This document shows, one piece after another, positions 1 through 20,566 of a stretch of 36,104 nt of DNA. Source of the DNA: Acidobacteriota bacterium (GTDB taxonomy: Bacteria > Acidobacteriota > Aminicenantia > UBA2199); contig JAUPLE010000969.1 of NCBI GenBank assembly GCA_030837085.1, positions 1 through 36,104 on the forward strand, in the 5' to 3' direction. Position 1 is the stretch's first letter. Each line of letters opens with the position of its first letter. The translations under genes and the position numbers were made by a program. Under the pieces are notes generated by a model. It saw only the letters and a list, made by a program, of their open reading frames with translations, was not told the origin of the DNA and did no database searches.

Positions 1-1464
1 AATGTACCATTGGCAGAAATATTCAAAACTCCCACAATCCTGGGATTATCAAGTTTTATTACAGCATCGGTCAAAGAGAGGTATATTTCGATAGAGCCCG
101 TTGAAAAGAAAGAATATTATGACTTGTCTTTTGCCCAAAGAAGATTATATATCCTGGATAAAACAGAAACATCCATCGATACGGCATATAACCTCCCCGA
201 GGTAATGTTAGTCGAAGGAGAACTTGATATACAGCGCTTTGAAGATACCTTTAATAAGTTACTAAAAAGGTATGACAGCTTTCGAACTTCCTTTGATATC
301 AAAAACGGAAAGCCAGTTCAGGTAATTCATCGTAATGTTGCCTTTGAAATTACATACATCTCAGCGGAAGACCAACTCCCAATAAGTGAATCGTTAAATC
401 AAACGATAAAAAACTTTATAAGACCTTTTGATTTGAGTAAAGCGCCGCTGCTAAGGACTGCAGTTGTCCATTTAAGCAGAAGAGAACATTTTTTGTTGTT
501 CGACATGCATCATATAATCGCAGATGGTGTTTCAATGGGCATTCTAGTTCGGAATTTTGTGAATTTATATGAAGGAAATAAATTACCTGCGTTAAAATTG
601 CAATATATAGATTTCGCAGGATGGCAAAATAAAATGTTTAAATGCGGACAAATGAAAAAGCAGGAAGAGTATTGGCTGAAAAAATTTAACGGGGATATCC
701 CAGTTTTGAATATGCCAACTGATTATCCCCGGCAATTGGAGAAAAGTTTTGCGGGAAATATTGTGACAACTGAAATCGATATACCATTAACGGATAAAAT
801 AAAAACGGTAATTTTGGAAACAGGAAATACTTTATATATCGTTTTATTGACAGTTTTAAATATATTATTATCCAAATATACAGGACAGGATGATATTATC
901 GTCGGATGCCCTACGGCCGGGAGAAATCACGAAGATTTAGAAAATATTATCGGTATGTTTGTAAATACATTAGCAATGAGGAATTATCTTCGAAGAGGAA
1001 TGACTGCCGGTGATTTTCTGGCAGAGGTGAAAAAAAATGCTTTGCAGGCTTTTGAAAACCAGGATTATCCATTCGAAGAATTGGTTAGTCAACTGAAGAT
1101 CGTCCAAAATCATACTCGAAATCCTTTATTTGATATATTGTTTGTATCTGAAAAGCTGGATATCCCGAAATTGGAGCTTGAAGATTTAACGTTTACACCT
1201 TATCAATTTGAATACAAAATATCTCATATGGACTTGGTATTTTATATCAAGGAAATTGAAGGGAAAATAGAATTGAAATTGGAATACGCGACAGCTTTGT
1301 TTAAGAAGCCGGGAGTGGCGGGCATGTTGAAACATTATCTGGAGATTCTTGAACAAGTGATTGATAATGTAAATATCAAATTAGAGGAGATCAAAATAAG
1401 CCATGAGTTTCTGGCGCCGCAGTCCAATATACTTAAGGAAAACCAGGATGGGTTTGGGTTTTGA
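1..1464 (+). CDS. NRPS C-terminal fragment: T (end)-C; 5' truncated
   Basis: The reading frame is open from the first base, so the true start lies upstream; the TTG at 10 is inside a domain. The first ~20 residues (VPLAEIFKTPTI) are the last helices of a peptidyl carrier (T) domain. A complete condensation (C) domain follows from about nt 85, with the opening pattern YYDLSFAQRRLY, the catalytic HHIIADG (second His codon at 511-513), and the later motifs VGCPTAGR, IGMFVNTLAMR and NQDYPFEEL. C domains join the donor peptide on the upstream T to the amino acid on the downstream T. All canonical catalytic residues are present, so it is probably active. The protein stops straight after the C domain (EIKISHEFL) with a short tail ending GFGF, a pattern shared with the two other C-terminal C proteins here. 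Its partner is presumably the next gene, 49 bp downstream. Confidence 0.93.
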   Translation, partial: NVPLAEIFKTPTILGLSSFITASVKERYISIEPVEKKEYYDLSFAQRRLYILDKTETSIDTAYNLPEVMLVEGELDIQRFEDTFNKLLKRYDSFRTSFDIKNGKPVQVIHRNVAFEITYISAEDQLPISESLNQTIKNFIRPFDLSKAPLLRTAVVHLSRREHFLLFDMHHIIADGVSMGILVRNFVNLYEGNKLPALKLQYIDFAGWQNKMFKCGQMKKQEEYWLKKFNGDIPVLNMPTDYPRQLEKSFAGNIVTTEIDIPLTDKIKTVILETGNTLYIVLLTVLNILLSKYTGQDDIIVGCPTAGRNHEDLENIIGMFVNTLAMRNYLRRGMTAGDFLAEVKKNALQAFENQDYPFEELVSQLKIVQNHTRNPLFDILFVSEKLDIPKLELEDLTFTPYQFEYKISHMDLVFYIKEIEGKIELKLEYATALFKKPGVAGMLKHYLEILEQVIDNVNIKLEEIKISHEFLAPQSNILKENQDGFGF

Positions 1465-1513: not shown

Positions 1514-4500
1514 ATGAAAAATGAGATTGATAATATAAAGACAGCTGCAGCAGCAGAACAATTCACCAGGGAACGGAATTATTGGCTGAATCGATTCGCC
1601 GATGAATTTGAGAAAACTTATTTTCCATATGATTTCCTGCATACAGGAGTTCACGGAGTTTACCCGAATGAACGAAAGATGGAATCGGTAAAATTTAGTT
1701 TTCCAGGGGACCTTTCTTCACGGTTGATTAAGCTGAGTAACCGTTTCGATCCCCGATTACATGTGATATTGGTGACGGGGTTAATATTAATACTTCATAA
1801 ATATACGGGCAATGGCGATATCATTGTCGGCGCTCCTATTTATATACAGGATAAAGAAGGAGAATTGATTAATACCGTACTAGCACTAAGAAATCGATTG
1901 GAAAACGAGATGACTTTTAAACAGCTTTTATTGCAAGTCAATGAAACTATTGTCGAAGCTGTGGATCATCAAAATTACCCGGTTGAACGGTTGGTACAGA
2001 AGTTAAATTTCCCGGGAAAAAGCAGCGGCTTTCCATTATTTGATGCGGCGATTTTGCTGGGGAATTGCCATAATGAGAAATACCTGGACCATATAAATCA
2101 TAATATGACATTTTCTTTACTTAGAATTGCTGAAGAGATTGAAGGTAAGCTTAAATACAATTCATTATTGTACAGTAAAGCCACTAGCCAACGGATAATC
2201 AAACATTTAATCCATCTCCTCGAACAAGCAGTTTTTAGAGTTGATACCCCAATCGCCGATATTGACGTATTGCCTGCCGATGAGAAACACAAACTATTGG
2301 TGGAATTTAATAATAATACCCAAGTTGAATACCCCCGGCAAAAAACCATTCAGCAATTATTTGAAGAACAAGTAGAACGAACGCCGGATCACACTGCCGT
2401 TTTTGGTCAAACGGTCCAGTCGGTCAGTTTAACTTATCGAAAATTAAATGAGCAGTCAAATCAATTGGCGCGAATGTTAATAAAAAAAGGCGTTAGACAA
2501 GAATCAGTCGTTGGGATTATGATAGACCCCTCACTGGAAATGGTGATTGGATTGATCGCCATATTAAAAGCCGGCGGTGCTTATTTACCGATTGATCCCG
2601 GCCTGCCTCCAAATCGCGTGCTTTTCATGTTGAATAATTCAGGAGCATTGGTGGTATTGACCGATAGTCATTCAATGAAGGATATATCTTTCACCCAATT
2701 TCAAAGGTTTGAAGAAAATAAAGATATTCCTATTCACATGACAGCCCCACGTCCCCCTATAGCCGAATTTGGGATCCTCCCGGCCCCGGATCGTTCCCAT
2801 ATTAACCTGCTCAACTACAAAAACAAGATCGGTATGGCCAGTGTGACCAATTGTATCTCCATTCAAACGACCCGCGGCTGCCCTTATGAATGTCTCTATT
2901 GCCATAAAATATGGTCTAAAAAACATGTTCACCGGGATGCGGAAAGTATTTATGGTGAAATCAACTATTTTTATAAAAATGGAGTTACTAACTTCGCTAT
3001 TATTGATGATTGTTTTAATCTTAATACACGGGAGAGCAGCAAGTTATTTGAACTGCTCATTAAAAACAAATTAAAAATCCAGTTATTTTTTCCCAATGGT
3101 TTACGGGGAGATATCATGACTCCGGGTTATATTGATTTGATGGTGGAAGCAGGTACGCGTGGTATTAATCTATCATTGGAGACAGCATCGCCCAGGCTGC
3201 AAAAACTGCTCAAGAAAAATTTGAACCTGGACAAATTTAAAGAAGTAGTGAATTACATTGCCGCAGCCCATTCTAATATTATCCTTGAAATGGCCACCAT
3301 GCACGGATTCCCGTCGGAAACAGAAGAAGAAGCCATGATGACTCTCAATTTTATCAAAGATATTAAATGGCTGCATTTCCCATATATTCATATATTAAAA
3401 ATATTTCCCAATACTGAAATGGAAGCGTTTGCACTAGAACAAGGCGTATCAAAACAAGACATCATGCAGTCAAAAAATCGCGCTTTCCATGAGTTACCCG
3501 AGACACTACCGTTCCCTAAAAGTTTTACCCGCAAATACCAGGCCGGATTCTTAAATGAATATTTCCTGGCGAAAGAAAGACTAAAAAATGTATTACCGGT
3601 GCAAATGAATATCTTAAGCGAAGCCGCATTAACACAGAAATACAATGCTTACCTCCCAGTTGAAATCAAATCCATTCGAGATGTGATCGAGTTTTCCGGT
3701 GTGGAAGGAGTGGAAATCCCGGTTGATTATGGTCGAGAGGAAAACAGACTCTCCATATTCGATCGGTTCCCGGTAAATCGCACTTTAATACAGGGGGCGC
3801 GACGTATATTATTCTTGGATCTATCCCAACATTTCAGCTCCCACCAAATGCTTTATCGTGTGGTCGAACAACCGCTGGGAGCCATGTACCTCCTGACTTA
3901 CCTTAAACAACAATTTGGAGACCGTATCGATGGAAGAATTTATAAATCCGGCAATGATTTCGACAATTTTGAAGAACTGAGAAAGATCGTTCACGATTTT
4001 CAACCGCAACTGATTGGGATTCGCACATTAACGTTTTTTAAAGATTTTTTCCATGAAACAGCAGCGTTGATCCGACACTGGGGAATTACATGCCCGATTA
4101 TAACCGGGGGCCCCTACGCATCCAGTGATTATGATACTATATTAAAAGATAAAAATATCGACTTGGTGGTTTTGGGTGAAGGCGAATATACACTGGTTGA
4201 ATTGATAACAGAAATGATGAAAAATGATTTCAAACTGCCGCCTTCCTCTGTTATGGCCGGTATAAAAGGTATTGTTTATGCCGAAAAAGTCTATGCTGAG
4301 AATTTTAGTATTAATGAAATTCAGCGCCAGGTAATTTTAATGGATGGATATGACCATATCCTCTCTGGCCAATCCTGCCAAAACCCGGAATCCGTTGCCA
4401 GTGGAAATAATCTTGCCTATGTCATGTATACCTCTGGCACAACGGGAATGCCCAAAGGTGTAATGGTAGAGCACCAGCAAGTCAACAATTGTATTCATTG

Positions 4501-6892
4501 GATGCAGGAAAAGTTTCAACTAACAAATAAAGATTCGATTGCCCAGCGTACCAATTTAATGTTTGACCCTTCGGTTTGGGAAATCTTTTGGCCGTTATAT
4601 GTCGGCGCAAAAGTAAAACTTTTAACCCGGCAGCAAGGGCGCGACGCGGAGTATTTACTCCATTTAATGGCAGATGATCGCAATGTAACCGTACTTTATT
4701 GCCCATCGCCGTTATTGACGGCAATAACGTACTTACTAAACCAGGCCGATAAGAAATCCCGGTTAAAATTAACATGGCTCATTATTGGTGCGGAATCCAT
4801 CCGGCCTGAAGTAATAAAAGATTTTTATTCTTACTACGAAGGGAAAATCGTTAACACCTATGGCCCCACGGAAGGCACCATAAACAACACCTATTATGAT
4901 ATCCACCGGTCGGATAAGTGTTCCATTGTTCCTATCGGAAAGCCAGTTGCCAATAATCAAATATATATCCTTTCGCCGGATATGAAACCCCAGCCAATGA
5001 TGGTGGCTGGGGAAATCCATATCGGGGGTGACAGCGTTGCCAGGGGGTATATTAATAATAGGGAGAAAACAGACCTATATTTTATTGCCAATCCGTTTGG
5101 GGAAGGGAAATTATATAAAACCGGCGATATCGGTAGATGGTGGCCTGATGGTGTAATCGAAATCATGGGCCGGGTGGATGAACAAATAAAGATCAGGGGC
5201 TACCGAATGGAACCCGGGGAAATACGGTCTGCCCTGCTAGGTCATAAGGCCATTAAGGATTGTATCATTACCGTTGTCGATAATAAGGAGTCGGAATCGC
5301 ATAACGAAGATTTCAAGACCTGTAAATCTTGCGGCATCACAACCCAATATCCCAGGGTAACCATTAATGATGATAACCTTTGCGAAATATGCAAAGAGAT
5401 ATTGAAATACCAATCGACTCTTCAAGCATATTTTAAAACCCTGGGGGAATTGGAGCAAACCATTCGAAATCTTAACAAAACAAAAACCGGCATATACGAT
5501 TGCCTTTTGTTATACAGCGGCGGCCGTGGGGCCGCGAATGCACTTTATAAATTGCATGACATGGGTTTCAAAATACTAACCGCAACCTATGATAATGGTT
5601 ACATGGGAAAAGCAGATATTGCCAATATAAAAATGATTACGTCCAAATTGAATGTGGATCATGTCATATTGACCCATAAAAACACCGACAACATACTCAG
5701 AGAAAGTTTGAAAACCGCCCATACGGTTTGCCGGGGGTGTTTTCTTACATCATCTTCCCTGGCTGCTGAATATGCCTATAAGAACAGCATTAACGTGGTG
5801 GTGGGTGCTACCTTGTCCCGCGGCCAAATTATCGATAGTAAATTGTTTATGTTCCTTCAGCAGGGAATTACCGATATAAATGAATTTGAGGCAACAGTCT
5901 CCAGGTTCCAGCAGGATATTCCTAAAATAGAGAAATCCTATTTTGACTTAATCGATATCGAGGCTGTGAAAGATGGAAGTGTGCATAAAAAAGTAACCTC
6001 ATTGGATTTTTACCGTTATTGCGAAATGACCAATGAAGAAATGATTTCTTACTTAAATGAAAGAGACCCTTATTGGAAAACCAGGAAATCATATGCTGTA
6101 TATTCCACCAATTGCCCTATCAAGCAAATTGGGGATTACGCACATTTGCAAGAAAGAGGATTTCATTTTTATGGACCACCTACCAGTTGGGAAAAACGCT
6201 TGGGGCATTTGGCGTTAAAAAATATCAAAGAAGACCTGGAGTGCCGTATGACGCCCAAGGGCTTCGCTAATTTCTTAAAGCGCGTCCAATATGACCGTAC
6301 CGAAAAAGAAAACAAAACGGATAAATATTTATGCGCCTATTTTATTCCCGACAAGCCTTCCACGGAAGGCGAATATTCAGCATCCGAATTAAGAAATTAT
6401 TTATTACAAACATTGCCCGAGTATATGATCCCCCATTATTTCGTTCCAATAGAGAAAATTCCTTTGACTACCAATGGGAAAGTGGATAGAAAAGCATTGC
6501 CATCCCCGAAATTATCCCGGTTAAAATTGGACGTGACCTATGTCGCCCCGGCTACCCAATTGGAAAAAACCATTTCGGAAACCTGGAAAGAATTACTGGG
6601 TGTGGATAGGGTAGGCGTTCAGGATAATTTTTTTGACCTGGGCGGAAATTCACTCAATATCGTTATGATGGAACATAAATTAAAAGAAGCCCTTAATATA
6701 GATATCCCGGTGGTAACACTGTTTACTTATCCCACCATTAGTTCTTTGACAAAGTACCTTGAGGAAGAAAAAAATCGGGAGACGATCTCTGCGTCGCCTG
6801 CTTCTGCCGGTAAAGCAGATCGGTCTATTGTAATTAATGAGGGTAAAAATATGATGAAACGCACCTTAGAAAAAATTGAGCAAAGGAAATAA
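1514..6892 (+). CDS. NRPS ½C-A-T with radical SAM/B12 and PP-loop units inserted in the A domain
   Basis: 1792 aa, far above the usual size of a single A-T module. Residues ~18-265 are only the C-terminal lobe of a C domain (RNYWLNRF, VGAPIYIQ, INTVLALRNR, HQNYPVERL); the HHxxxDG lobe is absent. The A domain has A1 at ~306, A2 LKAGGAYLPIDP at ~351, A3 LAYVMYTSGTTG at 967, A4 FDPSVWE at 1017, A5 NTYGPTE at ~1114, A7 YKTGDI at ~1201, A8 at 1219-1236, A9 LPEYMIP at ~1634 and A10 NGKVDR at 1654. About 570 extra residues lie between A2 and A3 and about 340 between A8 and A9 (see separate entries). The specificity code read by hand is D-P-W-Y-I-G-T-I-N-K; I cannot match it to a substrate. T has its phosphopantetheine Ser at 1713 (LGGNSL). 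A charged C-terminal helix probably docks to the next PKS. ATG 1514 is chosen because GGAG lies 7 nt upstream. Confidence 0.93.
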   Translation: MKNEIDNIKTAAAAEQFTRERNYWLNRFADEFEKTYFPYDFLHTGVHGVYPNERKMESVKFSFPGDLSSRLIKLSNRFDPRLHVILVTGLILILHKYTGNGDIIVGAPIYIQDKEGELINTVLALRNRLENEMTFKQLLLQVNETIVEAVDHQNYPVERLVQKLNFPGKSSGFPLFDAAILLGNCHNEKYLDHINHNMTFSLLRIAEEIEGKLKYNSLLYSKATSQRIIKHLIHLLEQAVFRVDTPIADIDVLPADEKHKLLVEFNNNTQVEYPRQKTIQQLFEEQVERTPDHTAVFGQTVQSVSLTYRKLNEQSNQLARMLIKKGVRQESVVGIMIDPSLEMVIGLIAILKAGGAYLPIDPGLPPNRVLFMLNNSGALVVLTDSHSMKDISFTQFQRFEENKDIPIHMTAPRPPIAEFGILPAPDRSHINLLNYKNKIGMASVTNCISIQTTRGCPYECLYCHKIWSKKHVHRDAESIYGEINYFYKNGVTNFAIIDDCFNLNTRESSKLFELLIKNKLKIQLFFPNGLRGDIMTPGYIDLMVEAGTRGINLSLETASPRLQKLLKKNLNLDKFKEVVNYIAAAHSNIILEMATMHGFPSETEEEAMMTLNFIKDIKWLHFPYIHILKIFPNTEMEAFALEQGVSKQDIMQSKNRAFHELPETLPFPKSFTRKYQAGFLNEYFLAKERLKNVLPVQMNILSEAALTQKYNAYLPVEIKSIRDVIEFSGVEGVEIPVDYGREENRLSIFDRFPVNRTLIQGARRILFLDLSQHFSSHQMLYRVVEQPLGAMYLLTYLKQQFGDRIDGRIYKSGNDFDNFEELRKIVHDFQPQLIGIRTLTFFKDFFHETAALIRHWGITCPIITGGPYASSDYDTILKDKNIDLVVLGEGEYTLVELITEMMKNDFKLPPSSVMAGIKGIVYAEKVYAENFSINEIQRQVILMDGYDHILSGQSCQNPESVASGNNLAYVMYTSGTTGMPKGVMVEHQQVNNCIHWMQEKFQLTNKDSIAQRTNLMFDPSVWEIFWPLYVGAKVKLLTRQQGRDAEYLLHLMADDRNVTVLYCPSPLLTAITYLLNQADKKSRLKLTWLIIGAESIRPEVIKDFYSYYEGKIVNTYGPTEGTINNTYYDIHRSDKCSIVPIGKPVANNQIYILSPDMKPQPMMVAGEIHIGGDSVARGYINNREKTDLYFIANPFGEGKLYKTGDIGRWWPDGVIEIMGRVDEQIKIRGYRMEPGEIRSALLGHKAIKDCIITVVDNKESESHNEDFKTCKSCGITTQYPRVTINDDNLCEICKEILKYQSTLQAYFKTLGELEQTIRNLNKTKTGIYDCLLLYSGGRGAANALYKLHDMGFKILTATYDNGYMGKADIANIKMITSKLNVDHVILTHKNTDNILRESLKTAHTVCRGCFLTSSSLAAEYAYKNSINVVVGATLSRGQIIDSKLFMFLQQGITDINEFEATVSRFQQDIPKIEKSYFDLIDIEAVKDGSVHKKVTSLDFYRYCEMTNEEMISYLNERDPYWKTRKSYAVYSTNCPIKQIGDYAHLQERGFHFYGPPTSWEKRLGHLALKNIKEDLECRMTPKGFANFLKRVQYDRTEKENKTDKYLCAYFIPDKPSTEGEYSASELRNYLLQTLPEYMIPHYFVPIEKIPLTTNGKVDRKALPSPKLSRLKLDVTYVAPATQLEKTISETWKELLGVDRVGVQDNFFDLGGNSLNIVMMEHKLKEALNIDIPVVTLFTYPTISSLTKYLEEEKNRETISASPASAGKADRSIVINEGKNMMKRTLEKIEQRK
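2670..4386 (+). other. Radical SAM + B12-binding insertion between A2 and A3
   Basis: Residues ~386-958 of the gene 2 protein. The 4Fe-4S motif C456-x3-C460-x2-C463 (GCPYECLYC) sits in the usual TTRGCP context, followed by typical radical SAM strands (FAIIDDCFNLN, GINLSLETASPR, HGFPSETEEEAM). From ~763 a cobalamin-binding Rossmann-like domain follows: RRILFLDLS, PLGAMYLLTYL, PQLIGIRTL, PIITGGPYAS, VVLGEGEYTLVEL. Family knowledge: class B radical SAM enzymes use B12 to methylate unactivated carbon or phosphorus, or to drive ring chemistry. Here B12 follows the radical SAM core, the reverse of the usual order. Inference: it modifies the amino acid activated or tethered by this module. Flanking A-domain sequence resumes cleanly, so this is a true insertion and not a gene fusion at an end. 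Confidence 0.88.
5297..6313 (+). other. Zinc-ribbon/PP-loop (N-acetyl sugar amidotransferase-like) insertion between A8 and A9
   Basis: Residues ~1262-1600 of the gene 2 protein. It opens with a C1270-x2-C1273 ... C1290-x2-C1293 ribbon (CKSCG, CEICK), then YDCLLLYSGGRGAANALY, where a PP-loop ATPase would read SGGxDS. The following strands (ILTATYDNGYM, LNVDHVILTH), C1406-RG-C1409 and VVGATLSRGQ resemble the WbpG/PseA-type amidotransferase and ATP-pyrophosphatase superfamily. The PP-loop Asp and last Ser are replaced by Gly1339 and Ala1340, so ATP pyrophosphatase chemistry may be lost or altered. The A domain resumes at DKYLCAYFIPDK (~1603). Superfamily assignment is moderately firm; function is unknown. 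Confidence 0.72.
6882..6887 (+). promoter_or_regulatory. Ribosome binding site fixing the gene 3 start
   Basis: AAAGGA lies inside the last codons of gene 2, 6 nt before ATG 6894. This favours ATG 6894 over the in-frame TTG at 6876, which would overlap gene 2 by 17 bp and has no comparable purine-rich site. Confidence 0.6.
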
Positions 6893-18100: not shown

Positions 18101-20566
18101 ATGTACGACCATCAGGCAAAAGACAGAAAAATAATTGCAGCCCAGGAAAATATCCGGGAAAAAGAATTTTGGACGGGGTTGGTGAAAGGAGAGCCGTTGA
18201 TAAGTTGTTTTCCTTTTGATTATAGAAAAATAACGGGGAAAGAGTATCCTACCGATAGTTTAGATATACTTCCCTTCACCTTTACTCCCGCAGTGGCGGC
18301 AGTATTGGTGAAAACCAGTAAAGATTCCCACCACCGGCTGCATATCGTGTTGACAGCTGCGGCGGCGATATTAATGAATAAATATTCTCGCTGGCCAAAC
18401 CAGGATATCCTGGTCATTGTGCCAATTTATCGTCCCCAACTGGATGGGGAGTTTATCAATACCGTCCTACCGTTACGAATCCGGCAGGCTTCTGCTATGA
18501 CATTTATGGATATATTAAAAGAGGTAAGCCGCGCCCTTATTGCCGCAGTGGAACATGAGAATTACCCTGTGGAACTGTTATTTGACCGTTTACCGTTAGA
18601 TATACACTTAAGCGGGGCAGGGGCAACTTTACCGGGAACGGGATTAATATTGGAGAATATCCACAATAAAGAACATATTCGGCATTTAAAGCTTCCCCTG
18701 GTTTTTTCCTTCCGCCGGGAAGATGCCAGGATTAGTGGCGAATTGGAATACAATTCGCATCTATGTAGGAAAGAACTGGCCGAACAGTTAGTTTCGCACC
18801 TGGGCTGGATAGTGGAGGGGATGATTTCTGACCTGGAGGCACCGGTCTCCTCACTTGAGATATTGTCTGAGGAAGAGAGAAAACGTTTATGGGAAGGTTT
18901 CTCTGGGATTGCAGAAGAAAAAGCCGCCGCGGTCGAACCAATGACTTCTTTTGACGAGAAATTACAGCGCATATGGGGGGAGGTGTTAGATGTAGAGATG
19001 AGCGACATCGGCGCAGAAGCCAACTTTTTTGAATTGAACGGTAGCTCCTTGAGAACATTAATGTTGATATCTCGTATTTACAAAGAATTTGAAATCCGTA
19101 TTACCCTTTCGGAAATTTTTAATCTTCCCACCTTCAGGAGACAGGCCGGGCACATCAAGAAAGCGTTGAAACAAACCTATCTCCCCATAGAACCGGTGGA
19201 AATGAGAGAATATTATCCTTTATCCTCTTTACAGAAAAGACTGTATTTCATTCAACAAGTCAATCCTGACAGCATTAGTTACAATGTCCCCTCGGTAGAC
19301 TTGTTTGAAGAGGAATTGGATAAGGATAATTTAAGAAGGACTTTCTGGGAATTAATCCGGCGGCATGAAAGTTTCAGGACCTCTTTCGAATTAGTTGATG
19401 AAGTGCCGGTGCAGAGAATATACCGCCCTGAGGAGCTTGAATTTGATATCCATTATCACATCGGCCACACAAAAAATGAGATGGAAAACATTATTGCAGC
19501 CTTTTTGAAGCCTTTTCACTTAAGTAAAGCACCGCTGTTGCGGGTTGGAGTGATTCACAATGAAAATAAGAATTACATAATGTTGGATACCCATCACATT
19601 GTGTTGGATCTGGTCTCCAACCTGTTATTCAAAAGGGAGTTCAGAAGAATTTATAAAGGGAATTCATTACCGCCAGTCAAGCTTCAATACAAAGATTTTT
19701 CCCAGTGGCAGAACAGTGAGACTCAAACCGGTATGCGCAGGGAGCAGGAAATCTATTGGCTGAAGGTATTAGAAGGAAATATTCCCATTCTTCATATTCC
19801 CACGGATTACTCGAGACCGGAAAAGCGTAACTTTGCAGGCCGATGGAAAGAATTTGACCTTCCCCCACAGCATATAGAGACGTTAAATCGACTGGCAATA
19901 GATGAAAGCGTTACTCCATACATGATTTTTCTGGCAATATATAATATTATGCTGGCAAAGATTTCCGGCCAGGAAGATATTATTGTCGGCACCGCAATGG
20001 TGGGGAGAAATCACCCGGATTTACATGAAATCATCGGGATGTTTGTGAATGTCCTGGCATTAAGGAATTTTCCCTCCGGGGAGAAAACCTTTCTCGATTT
20101 TCTTCGTAGTGTCAAAAAAAATACATTGAGTGCCTTTGATAACCAGGATTATCATTTTGAAGAGTTGGTAGATCATCTGCAAATAAAGCGGGATATAAAC
20201 CGAAATCCACTGTTTGATGTCATGTTTAACCAGGGAGACCTGGGCATTGGTTCAGGAAAAAATGAGCCGGGAGAAATTCCCCTGCCAATGGAGAATCCGG
20301 TTCAGGAAAGATACGAAATTACCACCTCCAAATTTGATCTTACTTTGTTTTATTTATCAGGAAGTCAAAATTTTGTATTTGAGTATTCCACTGAGTTGTT
20401 CGAGGAAAAATCCATAGAAGAATTTATTAAATACTTCAAAGAGATTACCGCTACGGTAATACAAAACACTTCCATTCTATTGAAGGATATTGTTATTTCT
20501 CATAATTTATGTGAATTTATTTTCGATGGAAAGGAAAATCGAATGGAATTTGAATTTGAATTTTAA
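18101..20566 (+). CDS. A-less NRPS module ½C-T-C
   Basis: 821 aa. Residues ~20-255 are an orphan C-terminal C-lobe (KEFWTGLVKGE, VIVPIYRPQ, INTVLPLR, HENYPVELL). After the usual inter-domain phrase LEILSEEERKRLW the sequence goes straight to a T domain (~285-355; FFELNGSSL, phosphopantetheine Ser316), with no adenylation domain. A full-length C domain follows (~365-815). Its active-site motif is HHIVLDL: His499 and Asp503 are kept, but the final Gly of HHxxxDG is Leu. The protein ends EFEFEF after DIVISHNLC. The T domain must therefore be loaded in trans, receive the chain by transfer, or be silent. It lies directly after the free acyltransferase gene and 24 bp before gene 7. There is no sign of a recent deletion scar: the linker is smooth and in frame. 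Confidence 0.92.
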   Translation: MYDHQAKDRKIIAAQENIREKEFWTGLVKGEPLISCFPFDYRKITGKEYPTDSLDILPFTFTPAVAAVLVKTSKDSHHRLHIVLTAAAAILMNKYSRWPNQDILVIVPIYRPQLDGEFINTVLPLRIRQASAMTFMDILKEVSRALIAAVEHENYPVELLFDRLPLDIHLSGAGATLPGTGLILENIHNKEHIRHLKLPLVFSFRREDARISGELEYNSHLCRKELAEQLVSHLGWIVEGMISDLEAPVSSLEILSEEERKRLWEGFSGIAEEKAAAVEPMTSFDEKLQRIWGEVLDVEMSDIGAEANFFELNGSSLRTLMLISRIYKEFEIRITLSEIFNLPTFRRQAGHIKKALKQTYLPIEPVEMREYYPLSSLQKRLYFIQQVNPDSISYNVPSVDLFEEELDKDNLRRTFWELIRRHESFRTSFELVDEVPVQRIYRPEELEFDIHYHIGHTKNEMENIIAAFLKPFHLSKAPLLRVGVIHNENKNYIMLDTHHIVLDLVSNLLFKREFRRIYKGNSLPPVKLQYKDFSQWQNSETQTGMRREQEIYWLKVLEGNIPILHIPTDYSRPEKRNFAGRWKEFDLPPQHIETLNRLAIDESVTPYMIFLAIYNIMLAKISGQEDIIVGTAMVGRNHPDLHEIIGMFVNVLALRNFPSGEKTFLDFLRSVKKNTLSAFDNQDYHFEELVDHLQIKRDINRNPLFDVMFNQGDLGIGSGKNEPGEIPLPMENPVQERYEITTSKFDLTLFYLSGSQNFVFEYSTELFEEKSIEEFIKYFKEITATVIQNTSILLKDIVISHNLCEFIFDGKENRMEFEFEF

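What the first reader, a model, noticed from the sequence alone, without database searches (positions are those of the whole stretch)
5297..6313. PP-loop ATPase-like insert with a broken signature motif
The SGGxDS loop reads SGGRGA, losing Asp and the last Ser, while four zinc-ribbon cysteines and the C-x2-C pair remain. The fold may have been kept for structure or binding, or it may use an altered chemistry (amide or sulfur transfer would be the family precedent).
Basis: partly seen in the sequence, partly recalled or inferred. Interest (0 to 1): 0.7.

Follow-up and report, generated by a model that had tools for sequence, protein, structure and literature searches.

The report
Retired ATPase insert in peptide-making enzyme
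A bacterial peptide-assembly enzyme carries, inside its amino-acid-selecting domain, a relative of an amide-modifying domain whose ATP-binding motif is lost in a small lineage while its metal-binding cysteines are kept, so it probably no longer does the original reaction.

Summary
Window 5285-6334 is a PP-loop insert between motifs A8 and A9 of an NRPS adenylation (A) domain; SGGRGA lies at 5516-5533. It is not a private defect: the four orthologous copies found (three genera) read SGGRGA (3) or ACERVA (1), while 17 of 17 readable related domains outside the clade read SGGKDS. Hosts of intact inserts have Asn-type (13 of 15 readable) or Gln-type (2 of 15) codes. This matches the AMDH domain of cystobactamid synthetase CysH (Asn dehydratase/aminomutase with SGGKD; PMC7966384), though CysH itself was not compared. 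Best reading: an AMDH-derived pseudo-ATPase. All 7 family-invariant cysteines are kept in 4 of 4 copies, but only 2 of 10 invariant PP-loop-region positions. Its A domain has another code (DPWY[IV]GT[IV]N) and a second, radical-SAM/B12 insert between A2 and A3, absent upstream of 14 of 14 testable intact relatives. The extra cysteines form the CXXC-C pattern of [4Fe-4S] LarE/TtuA enzymes, a possible cause of CysH's reported brown colour. Whether the domain is structural, inert or an ATP-free Fe-S enzyme is unsettled. New variant of a known kind.

The parts
1514..6892 (+). NRPS gene: partial (C-terminal half) condensation domain, A domain with two inserts, PCP; 1792 aa
   Evidence: frame; Pfam: Condensation profile positions 183-456 only, AMP-binding, Radical_SAM, B12-binding, PP-binding
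2699..4303 (+). Insert 1 (approximate): radical SAM followed by B12-binding domain, between A2 and A3
2873..2902 (+). Radical SAM cluster motif RGCPYECLYC
4418..4459 (+). A3 motif YVMYTSGTTGMPKG
   Evidence: motif names A3, A8-A10 recalled
5189..5224 (+). A8 motif KIRGYRMEPGEI, just before insert 2
5285..6334 (+). Insert 2 (the finding): AMDH-like PP-loop domain with degenerate ATP motif, between A8 and A9
5321..5332 (+). Zinc-ribbon pair CKSC
5381..5392 (+). Zinc-ribbon pair CEIC
5516..5533 (+). Degenerate PP-loop SGGRGA (SGGKDS in intact relatives)
5729..5740 (+). CRGC; aligns with the CXXC of TtuA PH0300 and of 8cnz in a family profile
5816..5827 (+). SRGQ; RGQ kept in 4 of 4 clade I copies and invariant in intact inserts
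6107..6118 (+). TNCP; third cysteine of the CXXC-C pattern (codon 6113-6115)
6413..6442 (+). A9 region LPEYMIPHYF, after insert 2
6470..6490 (+). A10 motif TNGKVDR with the lysine
   Evidence: role of the lysine as in the passages of PMC7966384
6569..6760 (+). PCP (carrier) domain; FDLGGNSL serine site at 6632-6655

Best explanation
The insert descends from the AMDH type of A-domain insert, which acts on the side-chain amide of carrier-bound Asn (by inference also Gln). In this lineage it sits in an A domain of another, unknown specificity that also holds a radical-SAM/B12 insert. The phosphate-binding PP-loop residues (K, D, S) and part of the presumed substrate segment were replaced, so it most likely no longer activates an amide with ATP. 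The fold and both cysteine sites (zinc ribbon; CXXC-C, predicted Fe-S) were kept, so it most likely persists as a folded, metal-bound pseudo-ATPase inside the A-domain hinge, serving structure or carrier/partner docking, while the radical-SAM/B12 unit does the tailoring. Shown: homology, conserved motif loss, kept cysteines, changed code, second insert. Inferred: AMDH ancestry (by matching described features, not by comparison with CysH), loss of ATPase activity, metal and Fe-S binding, structural or docking role, tailoring by the radical-SAM unit.
For: Clade I is one branch (100/100) and all 17 inserts in the tree stand apart from the stand-alone proteins (100/100; the tree warns of long branches among the latter). 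Motif: 4 of 4 degenerate in clade I, 17 of 17 readable others SGGKDS. Of 66 columns invariant among the intact inserts with a letter there (at least 10 of 15 rows), 35 are kept in 4 of 4 clade I rows: Cys 7 of 7 (Fisher p = 0.012), PP-loop region 2 of 10 (p = 0.037), segment 246-285 6 of 14. Codes: intact hosts Asn-type 13 of 15 readable (10 by alignment; 3 by eye), Gln-type 2 of 15; clade I DPWY[IV]GT[IV]N 4 of 4. rSAM insert upstream in 3 of 3 readable clade I genes, 0 of 14 intact ones with at least 800 aa upstream. Window versus G007: insert 67%, A core 70% identity. Pfam QueC (cut-off 22 bits): two intact inserts score 26.9 and 27.0, the window insert 18.4. CysH AMDH: SGGKD, Asn A domain, dark brown protein (PMC7966384).
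Against: No direct sequence comparison with CysH. The G003 copy (ACERVA) is 19 points less conserved in the insert than in its A core against both window and G007, which looks like decay rather than a kept role. T101, D103 and G105 of the second strand are kept in 4 of 4, so some nucleotide binding may remain. Nothing shows docking or a structural need: most rSAM-bearing A domains of these genomes have no PP insert. An intact Streptomyces relative also falls just short of the QueC cut-off (21.0 bits) and its neighbouring A domain reads DARTASLMT, not an Asn code. No usable structural model (pLDDT 37.8). The two Fisher tests are small and not corrected for several looks.
Confidence: 0.5

Rival explanations
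1. Remodelled, ATP-independent enzyme: the retained CXXC-C site holds a [4Fe-4S] cluster that acts as Lewis acid or electron relay on the carrier-bound residue, for instance an aminomutase-like step without the dehydratase step, or an auxiliary cluster for the radical-SAM/B12 insert.
For: 7 of 7 invariant cysteines and RGQ kept in 4 of 4; six intact-invariant positions are fixed to another residue in all four (K81R, S83A, F138L, I284D, D303E, E317D), as in remodelling; CXXC aligns with that of TtuA PH0300 and 8cnz; AMDH is bifunctional and its authors suggest that ATP-site mutations might remove only one function (PMC7966384); window and G007 copies diverge about as slowly as their A core.
Against: 59 of the 63 rSAM match stretches lie away from any PP insert found, so the insert is not generally needed by the rSAM unit; no metal data; the G003 copy is decaying.
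Confidence: 0.25
2. Neutral relic: the insert was carried in with a module exchange, lost its substrate, and is drifting; it stays only because clean removal from the A-domain hinge is rare.
For: A cores with and without inserts can be close relatives, so inserts appear to move independently of cores; the G003 motif is ACERVA and its insert is 19 points below its core.
Against: Window, G007 and G006 copies keep an open frame and SGGRGA by different codons; insert is near the core in identity (67 and 70% window-G007; 51 and 56% window-G006); zinc ribbon and CXXC-C are kept even in G003.
Confidence: 0.15
3. The altered loop still binds and cleaves ATP and the domain does ordinary family chemistry (amide dehydration, amidation or sulfur transfer).
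For: S, G, G remain in 3 of 4 copies and T-x-D-x-G of the next strand in 4 of 4.
Against: K, D and S are all replaced; the fourth copy lacks even SGG; the A-domain code is not Asn/Gln-like; the segment around the third cysteine is also changed.
Confidence: 0.08

Closest known systems
AMDH domain of CysH (cystobactamid) and its AlbIV homologue
   Same: Insert in an NRPS A domain; SGGKD motif and Asn-type A domains are described for the family (PMC7966384), as in most intact homologues found here
   Different: The window insert lacks the ATP motif, its A domain is not Asn-type, and it shares the A domain with an rSAM/B12 insert. Not compared with CysH letter for letter
N-acetyl sugar amidotransferase, TIGR03573 (WbuX/WbpG; LpNASAT 8WEX)
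   Same: Best profile match (E 2.3e-20) and the CXXC...CXXC tetracysteine that binds zinc in 8WEX (PMC10607449)
   Different: 73.3 bits against a cut-off of 203.2; no SGGxDS; 8WEX has Asp in place of the third CXXC-C cysteine in a weak profile alignment
[4Fe-4S] CXXC-C PP-loop enzymes (TtuA, NcsA, LarE of T. maritima)
   Same: CXXC plus a distant Cys in a PP-loop fold; the CXXC aligns by profile
   Different: No SGGxDS; context is a carrier-bound amino acid instead of tRNA or a cofactor precursor
Ctu2/Ncs2, the diverged partner of Ctu1/Ncs6
   Same: PP-loop relative proposed to be kept as a non-catalytic subunit, zinc sites kept (PMC10067955, passages)
   Different: Ctu2 lost the cluster cysteines; the window insert kept them and lost the ATP motif
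Interrupted A domains (TioN, MarQ at a2-a3; KtzH, TioS at a8-a9)
   Same: Same two insertion sites (PMC11355689, passages)
   Different: Those examples carry methyltransferases; here rSAM/B12 and PP-loop inserts, both in one natural A domain

Membership tests
AMDH domain | Inserted in an NRPS A domain | tested here: met
   Between A8 and A9 motifs
AMDH domain | SGGKD ATP-binding motif | tested here: not met
   SGGRGA; ACERVA in one orthologue
AMDH domain | Asn-specific A domain (predicted) | tested here: not met
   DPWYIGTIN against DLTK[IV]GEVG in 13 of 15 readable intact hosts; which amino acid a code means is recalled
AMDH domain | Homology to SGGKDS inserts in Asn/Gln-type A domains | tested here: met
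   E 1.2e-60 to 9.0e-23 for the best piece of each, 33-37% identity; inserts form one branch 100/100
AMDH domain | Homology to CysH itself | not tested
   CysH sequence was not obtained; it was not among the hits or 76
AMDH domain | Dehydration or aminomutation of carrier-bound Asn | not testable with these tools
   needs an assay
N-acetyl sugar amidotransferase (TIGR03573) | Score over curated cut-off 203.2 | tested here: not met
   73.3 bits
N-acetyl sugar amidotransferase (TIGR03573) | Tetracysteine CXXC...CXXC | tested here: met
N-acetyl sugar amidotransferase (TIGR03573) | SGGXDS PP-loop | tested here: not met
[4Fe-4S] CXXC-C PP-loop enzymes | CXXC aligned with the CXXC of a cluster enzyme | tested here: met
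   Profile alignment to PH0300 TtuA and 8cnz; that this CXXC holds the cluster in PH0300 and 8cnz is recalled, the three-cysteine rule is
[4Fe-4S] CXXC-C PP-loop enzymes | Third cluster cysteine | tested here: inconclusive
   Cys present and near-invariant but outside the aligned stretch
[4Fe-4S] CXXC-C PP-loop enzymes | SGGXDS | tested here: not met
Interrupted A domain | Insertion between a2-a3 and/or a8-a9 with A motifs intact | tested here: met

The most novel reading that the evidence does not exclude
A natural separation of function in AMDH-type inserts: an ATP-free, [4Fe-4S]-bearing domain that works with a circularly permuted radical-SAM/B12 domain inside one doubly interrupted A domain, modifying the residue on the adjacent carrier protein.
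Probability: 0.18. Interest if true: 0.8.

Novelty: new variant of a known kind. Interest (0 to 1): 0.55.

Why it matters
How AMDH domains make nitriles or isomerise Asn is called unknown in PMC7966384. A natural lineage that lost the ATP motif but kept every metal-type cysteine shows which parts can be separated, and the CXXC-C pattern in the intact relatives offers a concrete, testable cause for the reported brown colour of CysH. It also gives a natural A domain interrupted at both known sites; the review PMC11355689 (passages) describes such a double interruption as an engineered construct.

Tried and rejected
Structure: one AlphaFold job on window plus L005 gave pLDDT 37.8; not used for a fold search.

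dN/dS: most synonymous comparisons are near or past saturation, so ratios are not used; only identities are cited.

Sequencing error or a private defect as cause of SGGRGA: rejected, three genomes share it with different codons.

Ordinary N-acetyl sugar amidotransferase: rejected by score, motif and context. No search was made for glutaminase (HisH/HisF-like) partners.

Does the PP insert follow the rSAM insert everywhere? No: 59 of 63 rSAM match stretches lie away from any PP insert (three coincide with clade I genes; the fourth, on G006:C683, ends before the place is reached), and five rSAM-flagged A domains read through A10 have a normal A8-A10 gap of 74-76 residues. In one search only 24 candidates were scored in several genomes, so its counts are lower bounds, and some matches are pieces of one gene. 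The strict rSAM pattern undercounts (L106 holds a match that the pattern missed), so only one search is used for the contrast. The A2-A3 distance test failed for most rows and is not used.

Codes: four intact hosts (L060, L062, L063, L064) carry no motif flag there because the pattern was too strict; they were assigned by position, TSG lying 284-330 residues before the insert. In L063 (G397) core and insert lie in different frames. The codes of G073, Roseovarius and Pseudohalocynthiibacter were read by eye. Unreadable: G006:C513 and G006:C632 (no core on the contig). In the small alignment the intact control read DLTL instead of DLTK, so position 278 of the G006 and Streptomyces codes is less sure.

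Rows dropped or set apart: the partial inserts L022 and L024 were left out of the tree; L022 has no readable motif; L010, L013, L014 and L025 (all SGGxDS) were not put into A2; six weaker phylum matches (L049-L053, L056) were read later and are SGG[KR]DS in 365-385-residue frames without an A-domain motif. Of the five plasmid records three were read; the other two, annotated as N-acetyl sugar amidotransferase and 7-cyano-7-deazaguanine synthase, were not. L005 is the same contig as that of G007 (both 17337 bases) and is not counted twice.

Half-condensation/tail test: the first classification mis-sorted ketosynthases and gave p = 0.25; the classes were redefined after seeing the list, so that count is exploratory.

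Papers: PMC10607449 parts 1 and 2 of 4 read; PMC7966384, PMC11355689, PMC10067955, PMC9283937, PMC9259500 and PMC12858407 passages only; other papers seen only in search listings. That nothing in print was met on PP-loop or rSAM/B12 inserts in A domains beyond AMDH rests on search in this open-licence library alone.
Full report
What is there. The frame 1514-6892 (1792 aa) reads, by Pfam, as the C-terminal half of a condensation domain, an A domain in pieces, a radical SAM and a B12-binding domain within it, and a carrier domain. The finding's stretch is a second insert, about 5285-6334, after motif A8 (5189-5224) and before A9/A10 (6413-6490). Its best family match is TIGR03573, N-acetyl sugar amidotransferase, E = 2.3e-20 but 73.3 bits against a cut-off of 203.2. 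The loop SGGRGA is at 5516-5533. The genome is a draft related to a Candidatus Aminicenantes assembly: one search gave a 67%-identical locus, L005, from JAGLQA010000122.1, which is the same contig as that of genome G007.

Is the motif change a defect or a trait? P0003 was searched in 60 relatives, in 142 genomes of the class and in 34 of the family, sets that overlap; a profile was searched in 396 genomes of the phylum. Close orthologues were found in three more genomes, one of G000's own genus and two of other genera: G007 67%, G006 51%, G003 49% identity. Three of the four copies read SGGRGA and one (G003) reads ACERVA. Related inserts outside this clade read SGGKDS in 14 of 15 alignment rows (the fifteenth, L022, lacks the region), and so do 3 of 3 plasmid-borne relatives that were read (Roseovarius, Pseudohalocynthiibacter, Streptomyces): 17 of 17 readable. 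Stand-alone relatives read SGGxDS in 13 of 13 aligned rows, and six weaker phylum matches read SGG[KR]DS. The clade is one branch with 100/100 support on a tree built without the motif columns. The three SGGRGA copies use different codons (CGT GGG GCC, AGG GGT GCT, AGG GGA GCA for R-G-A), so the residues are conserved at the protein level.

What the intact relatives are. The A domains that host intact inserts have code residues DLTK[IV]GEVG in 13 of 15 readable cases (10 by alignment; G073, Roseovarius and Pseudohalocynthiibacter by eye) and DAQDIGVVD in 2 of 15. From memory these are the Asn and Gln codes. PMC7966384 (passages) describes such a domain: AMDH in CysH, an insert with a conserved SGGKD motif, homologues all in A domains predicted Asn-specific, which dehydrates carrier-bound Asn to beta-cyanoalanine or isomerises it, and whose protein is dark brown. 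I could not compare CysH letter for letter, so the assignment rests on these shared features. In the Streptomyces plasmid the domain stands at the start of a separate gene, two genes after asnB, which fits an Asn link; against it, the neighbouring A domain reads DARTASLMT. The Gln-type hosts suggest that the domain may act on side-chain amides in general.

What changed in the window's clade. Of 66 columns invariant across the intact rows that have a letter there (at least 10 of 15), 35 are kept in all four clade I rows. All 7 cysteines are kept (Fisher p = 0.012 against other columns), while the PP-loop region keeps 2 of 10 (p = 0.037) and the segment around the third cysteine 6 of 14. The clade's A domains share another code, DPWY[IV]GT[IV]N, in 4 of 4 (position 278 of the G006 code is less sure). 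An rSAM/B12 insert lies upstream in 3 of 3 clade members whose contig reaches that far and in 0 of 14 intact relatives with at least 800 aa upstream. The fourth member's contig starts inside A3; another contig of that genome ends shortly after an rSAM insert that is 59% identical to the window's, which fits one gene cut in two but does not prove it. An A-core tree (quick method, many weak forks) shows closely related cores with and without inserts, so inserts appear to be exchanged independently of cores.

Constraint. Between window and G007 the insert (67%) is about as conserved as its A core (70%). In 27 pairs of intact inserts the core-minus-insert difference ranges from -18 to +6 points (the most negative pairs compare Asn-type with Gln-type cores). 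The G003 copy with ACERVA differs by +19 against both window and G007. So the SGGRGA form looks maintained, while the G003 copy looks relaxed. Two intact inserts pass the Pfam QueC threshold (26.9 and 27.0 bits against 22), the Streptomyces relative falls just short (21.0), and the window insert scores 18.4.

Metal sites. Besides the zinc ribbon, the family keeps CXXC and a distant Cys (near-invariant columns 149, 152, 277). A profile of 32 rows aligns the CXXC with that of TtuA PH0300 and of 8cnz; 8wex has Asp at the third position in a weak alignment. CXXC-C is described as the predicted and tested [4Fe-4S] site of LarE of T. maritima (PMC9283937 passages), and three cysteines as that of TtuA/NcsA (PMC10067955 passages). 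The CysH authors looked for CxxCxxxC and did not find it. A CXXC-C site, if present in CysH, would explain the brown colour; this is a prediction.

How it most likely works. The A domain activates an unknown amino acid and loads the adjacent carrier domain. The rSAM/B12 insert, with the cluster motif RGCPYECLYC, is the likelier tailoring unit. The AMDH-derived insert most likely cannot activate an amide with ATP any more and persists as a metal-bound folded module. Shown: homology, clade-wide motif loss, kept cysteines, changed code, second insert. Inferred: loss of ATP chemistry, metal and Fe-S binding, structural or docking role. An ATP-free Fe-S function is the main rival and is not excluded.

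Novelty. The kind (AMDH insert, interrupted A domain) is known. A degenerate, cysteine-retaining clade in a naturally doubly interrupted A domain was not met in the searches of the held library, which holds open-licence papers only.

Noticed in passing
window 2699-4303; L065-L084, L091-L130: The radical-SAM/B12 insert between A2 and A3 recurs in 63 match stretches in 7 of 60 genomes, the window's own included (a lower bound, some are pieces of one gene), in A domains with Ile-, Glu-, Pro-like and other codes (names recalled). The B12-binding part follows the rSAM part, the reverse of the usual order as I know it, as in a circular permutation.
   Followed up: partly
L036 and L038 (G003:C697, G003:C702): Intact SGGKDS inserts in A domains with a Gln-like code (DAQDIGVVD), nested among Glu-type cores: a possible Gln version of AMDH.
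   Followed up: partly
L111, L113, L119, L130, L131, L133, L135, L137, L138: Stand-alone PP-loop proteins with SGGxDS lie beside NRPS-like genes in these loci, some next to rSAM-bearing modules or, by eye, stand-alone B12-type radical SAM genes; two others (L134, L136) do not.
   Followed up: partly
window 1-1464 end and 1514 start; 18101-20566 end and 20591 start; many L loci: Proteins ending in an acidic F-x-F type tail precede genes that begin with half a condensation domain: 17 of 23 half-C starts against 0 of 13 ketosynthase starts (classes set after a first look). Possible docking pair.
   Followed up: partly
L143 (NZ_CP108680.1 58232-67170): Streptomyces sp. NBC_01216 plasmid: an AMDH-like domain outside any A domain, at the start of a condensation-domain protein, in a run with asnB, an A-domain gene and an amino acid racemase.
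   Followed up: no
L059-L064: In several distant genomes of the phylum the AMDH module lies near a second A domain with code DSALIAEVW (5 loci: L059, L061-L064) and, by eye, acyl-ligase-like and glycosyltransferase-like genes: a recurring, unidentified gene cluster.
   Followed up: no
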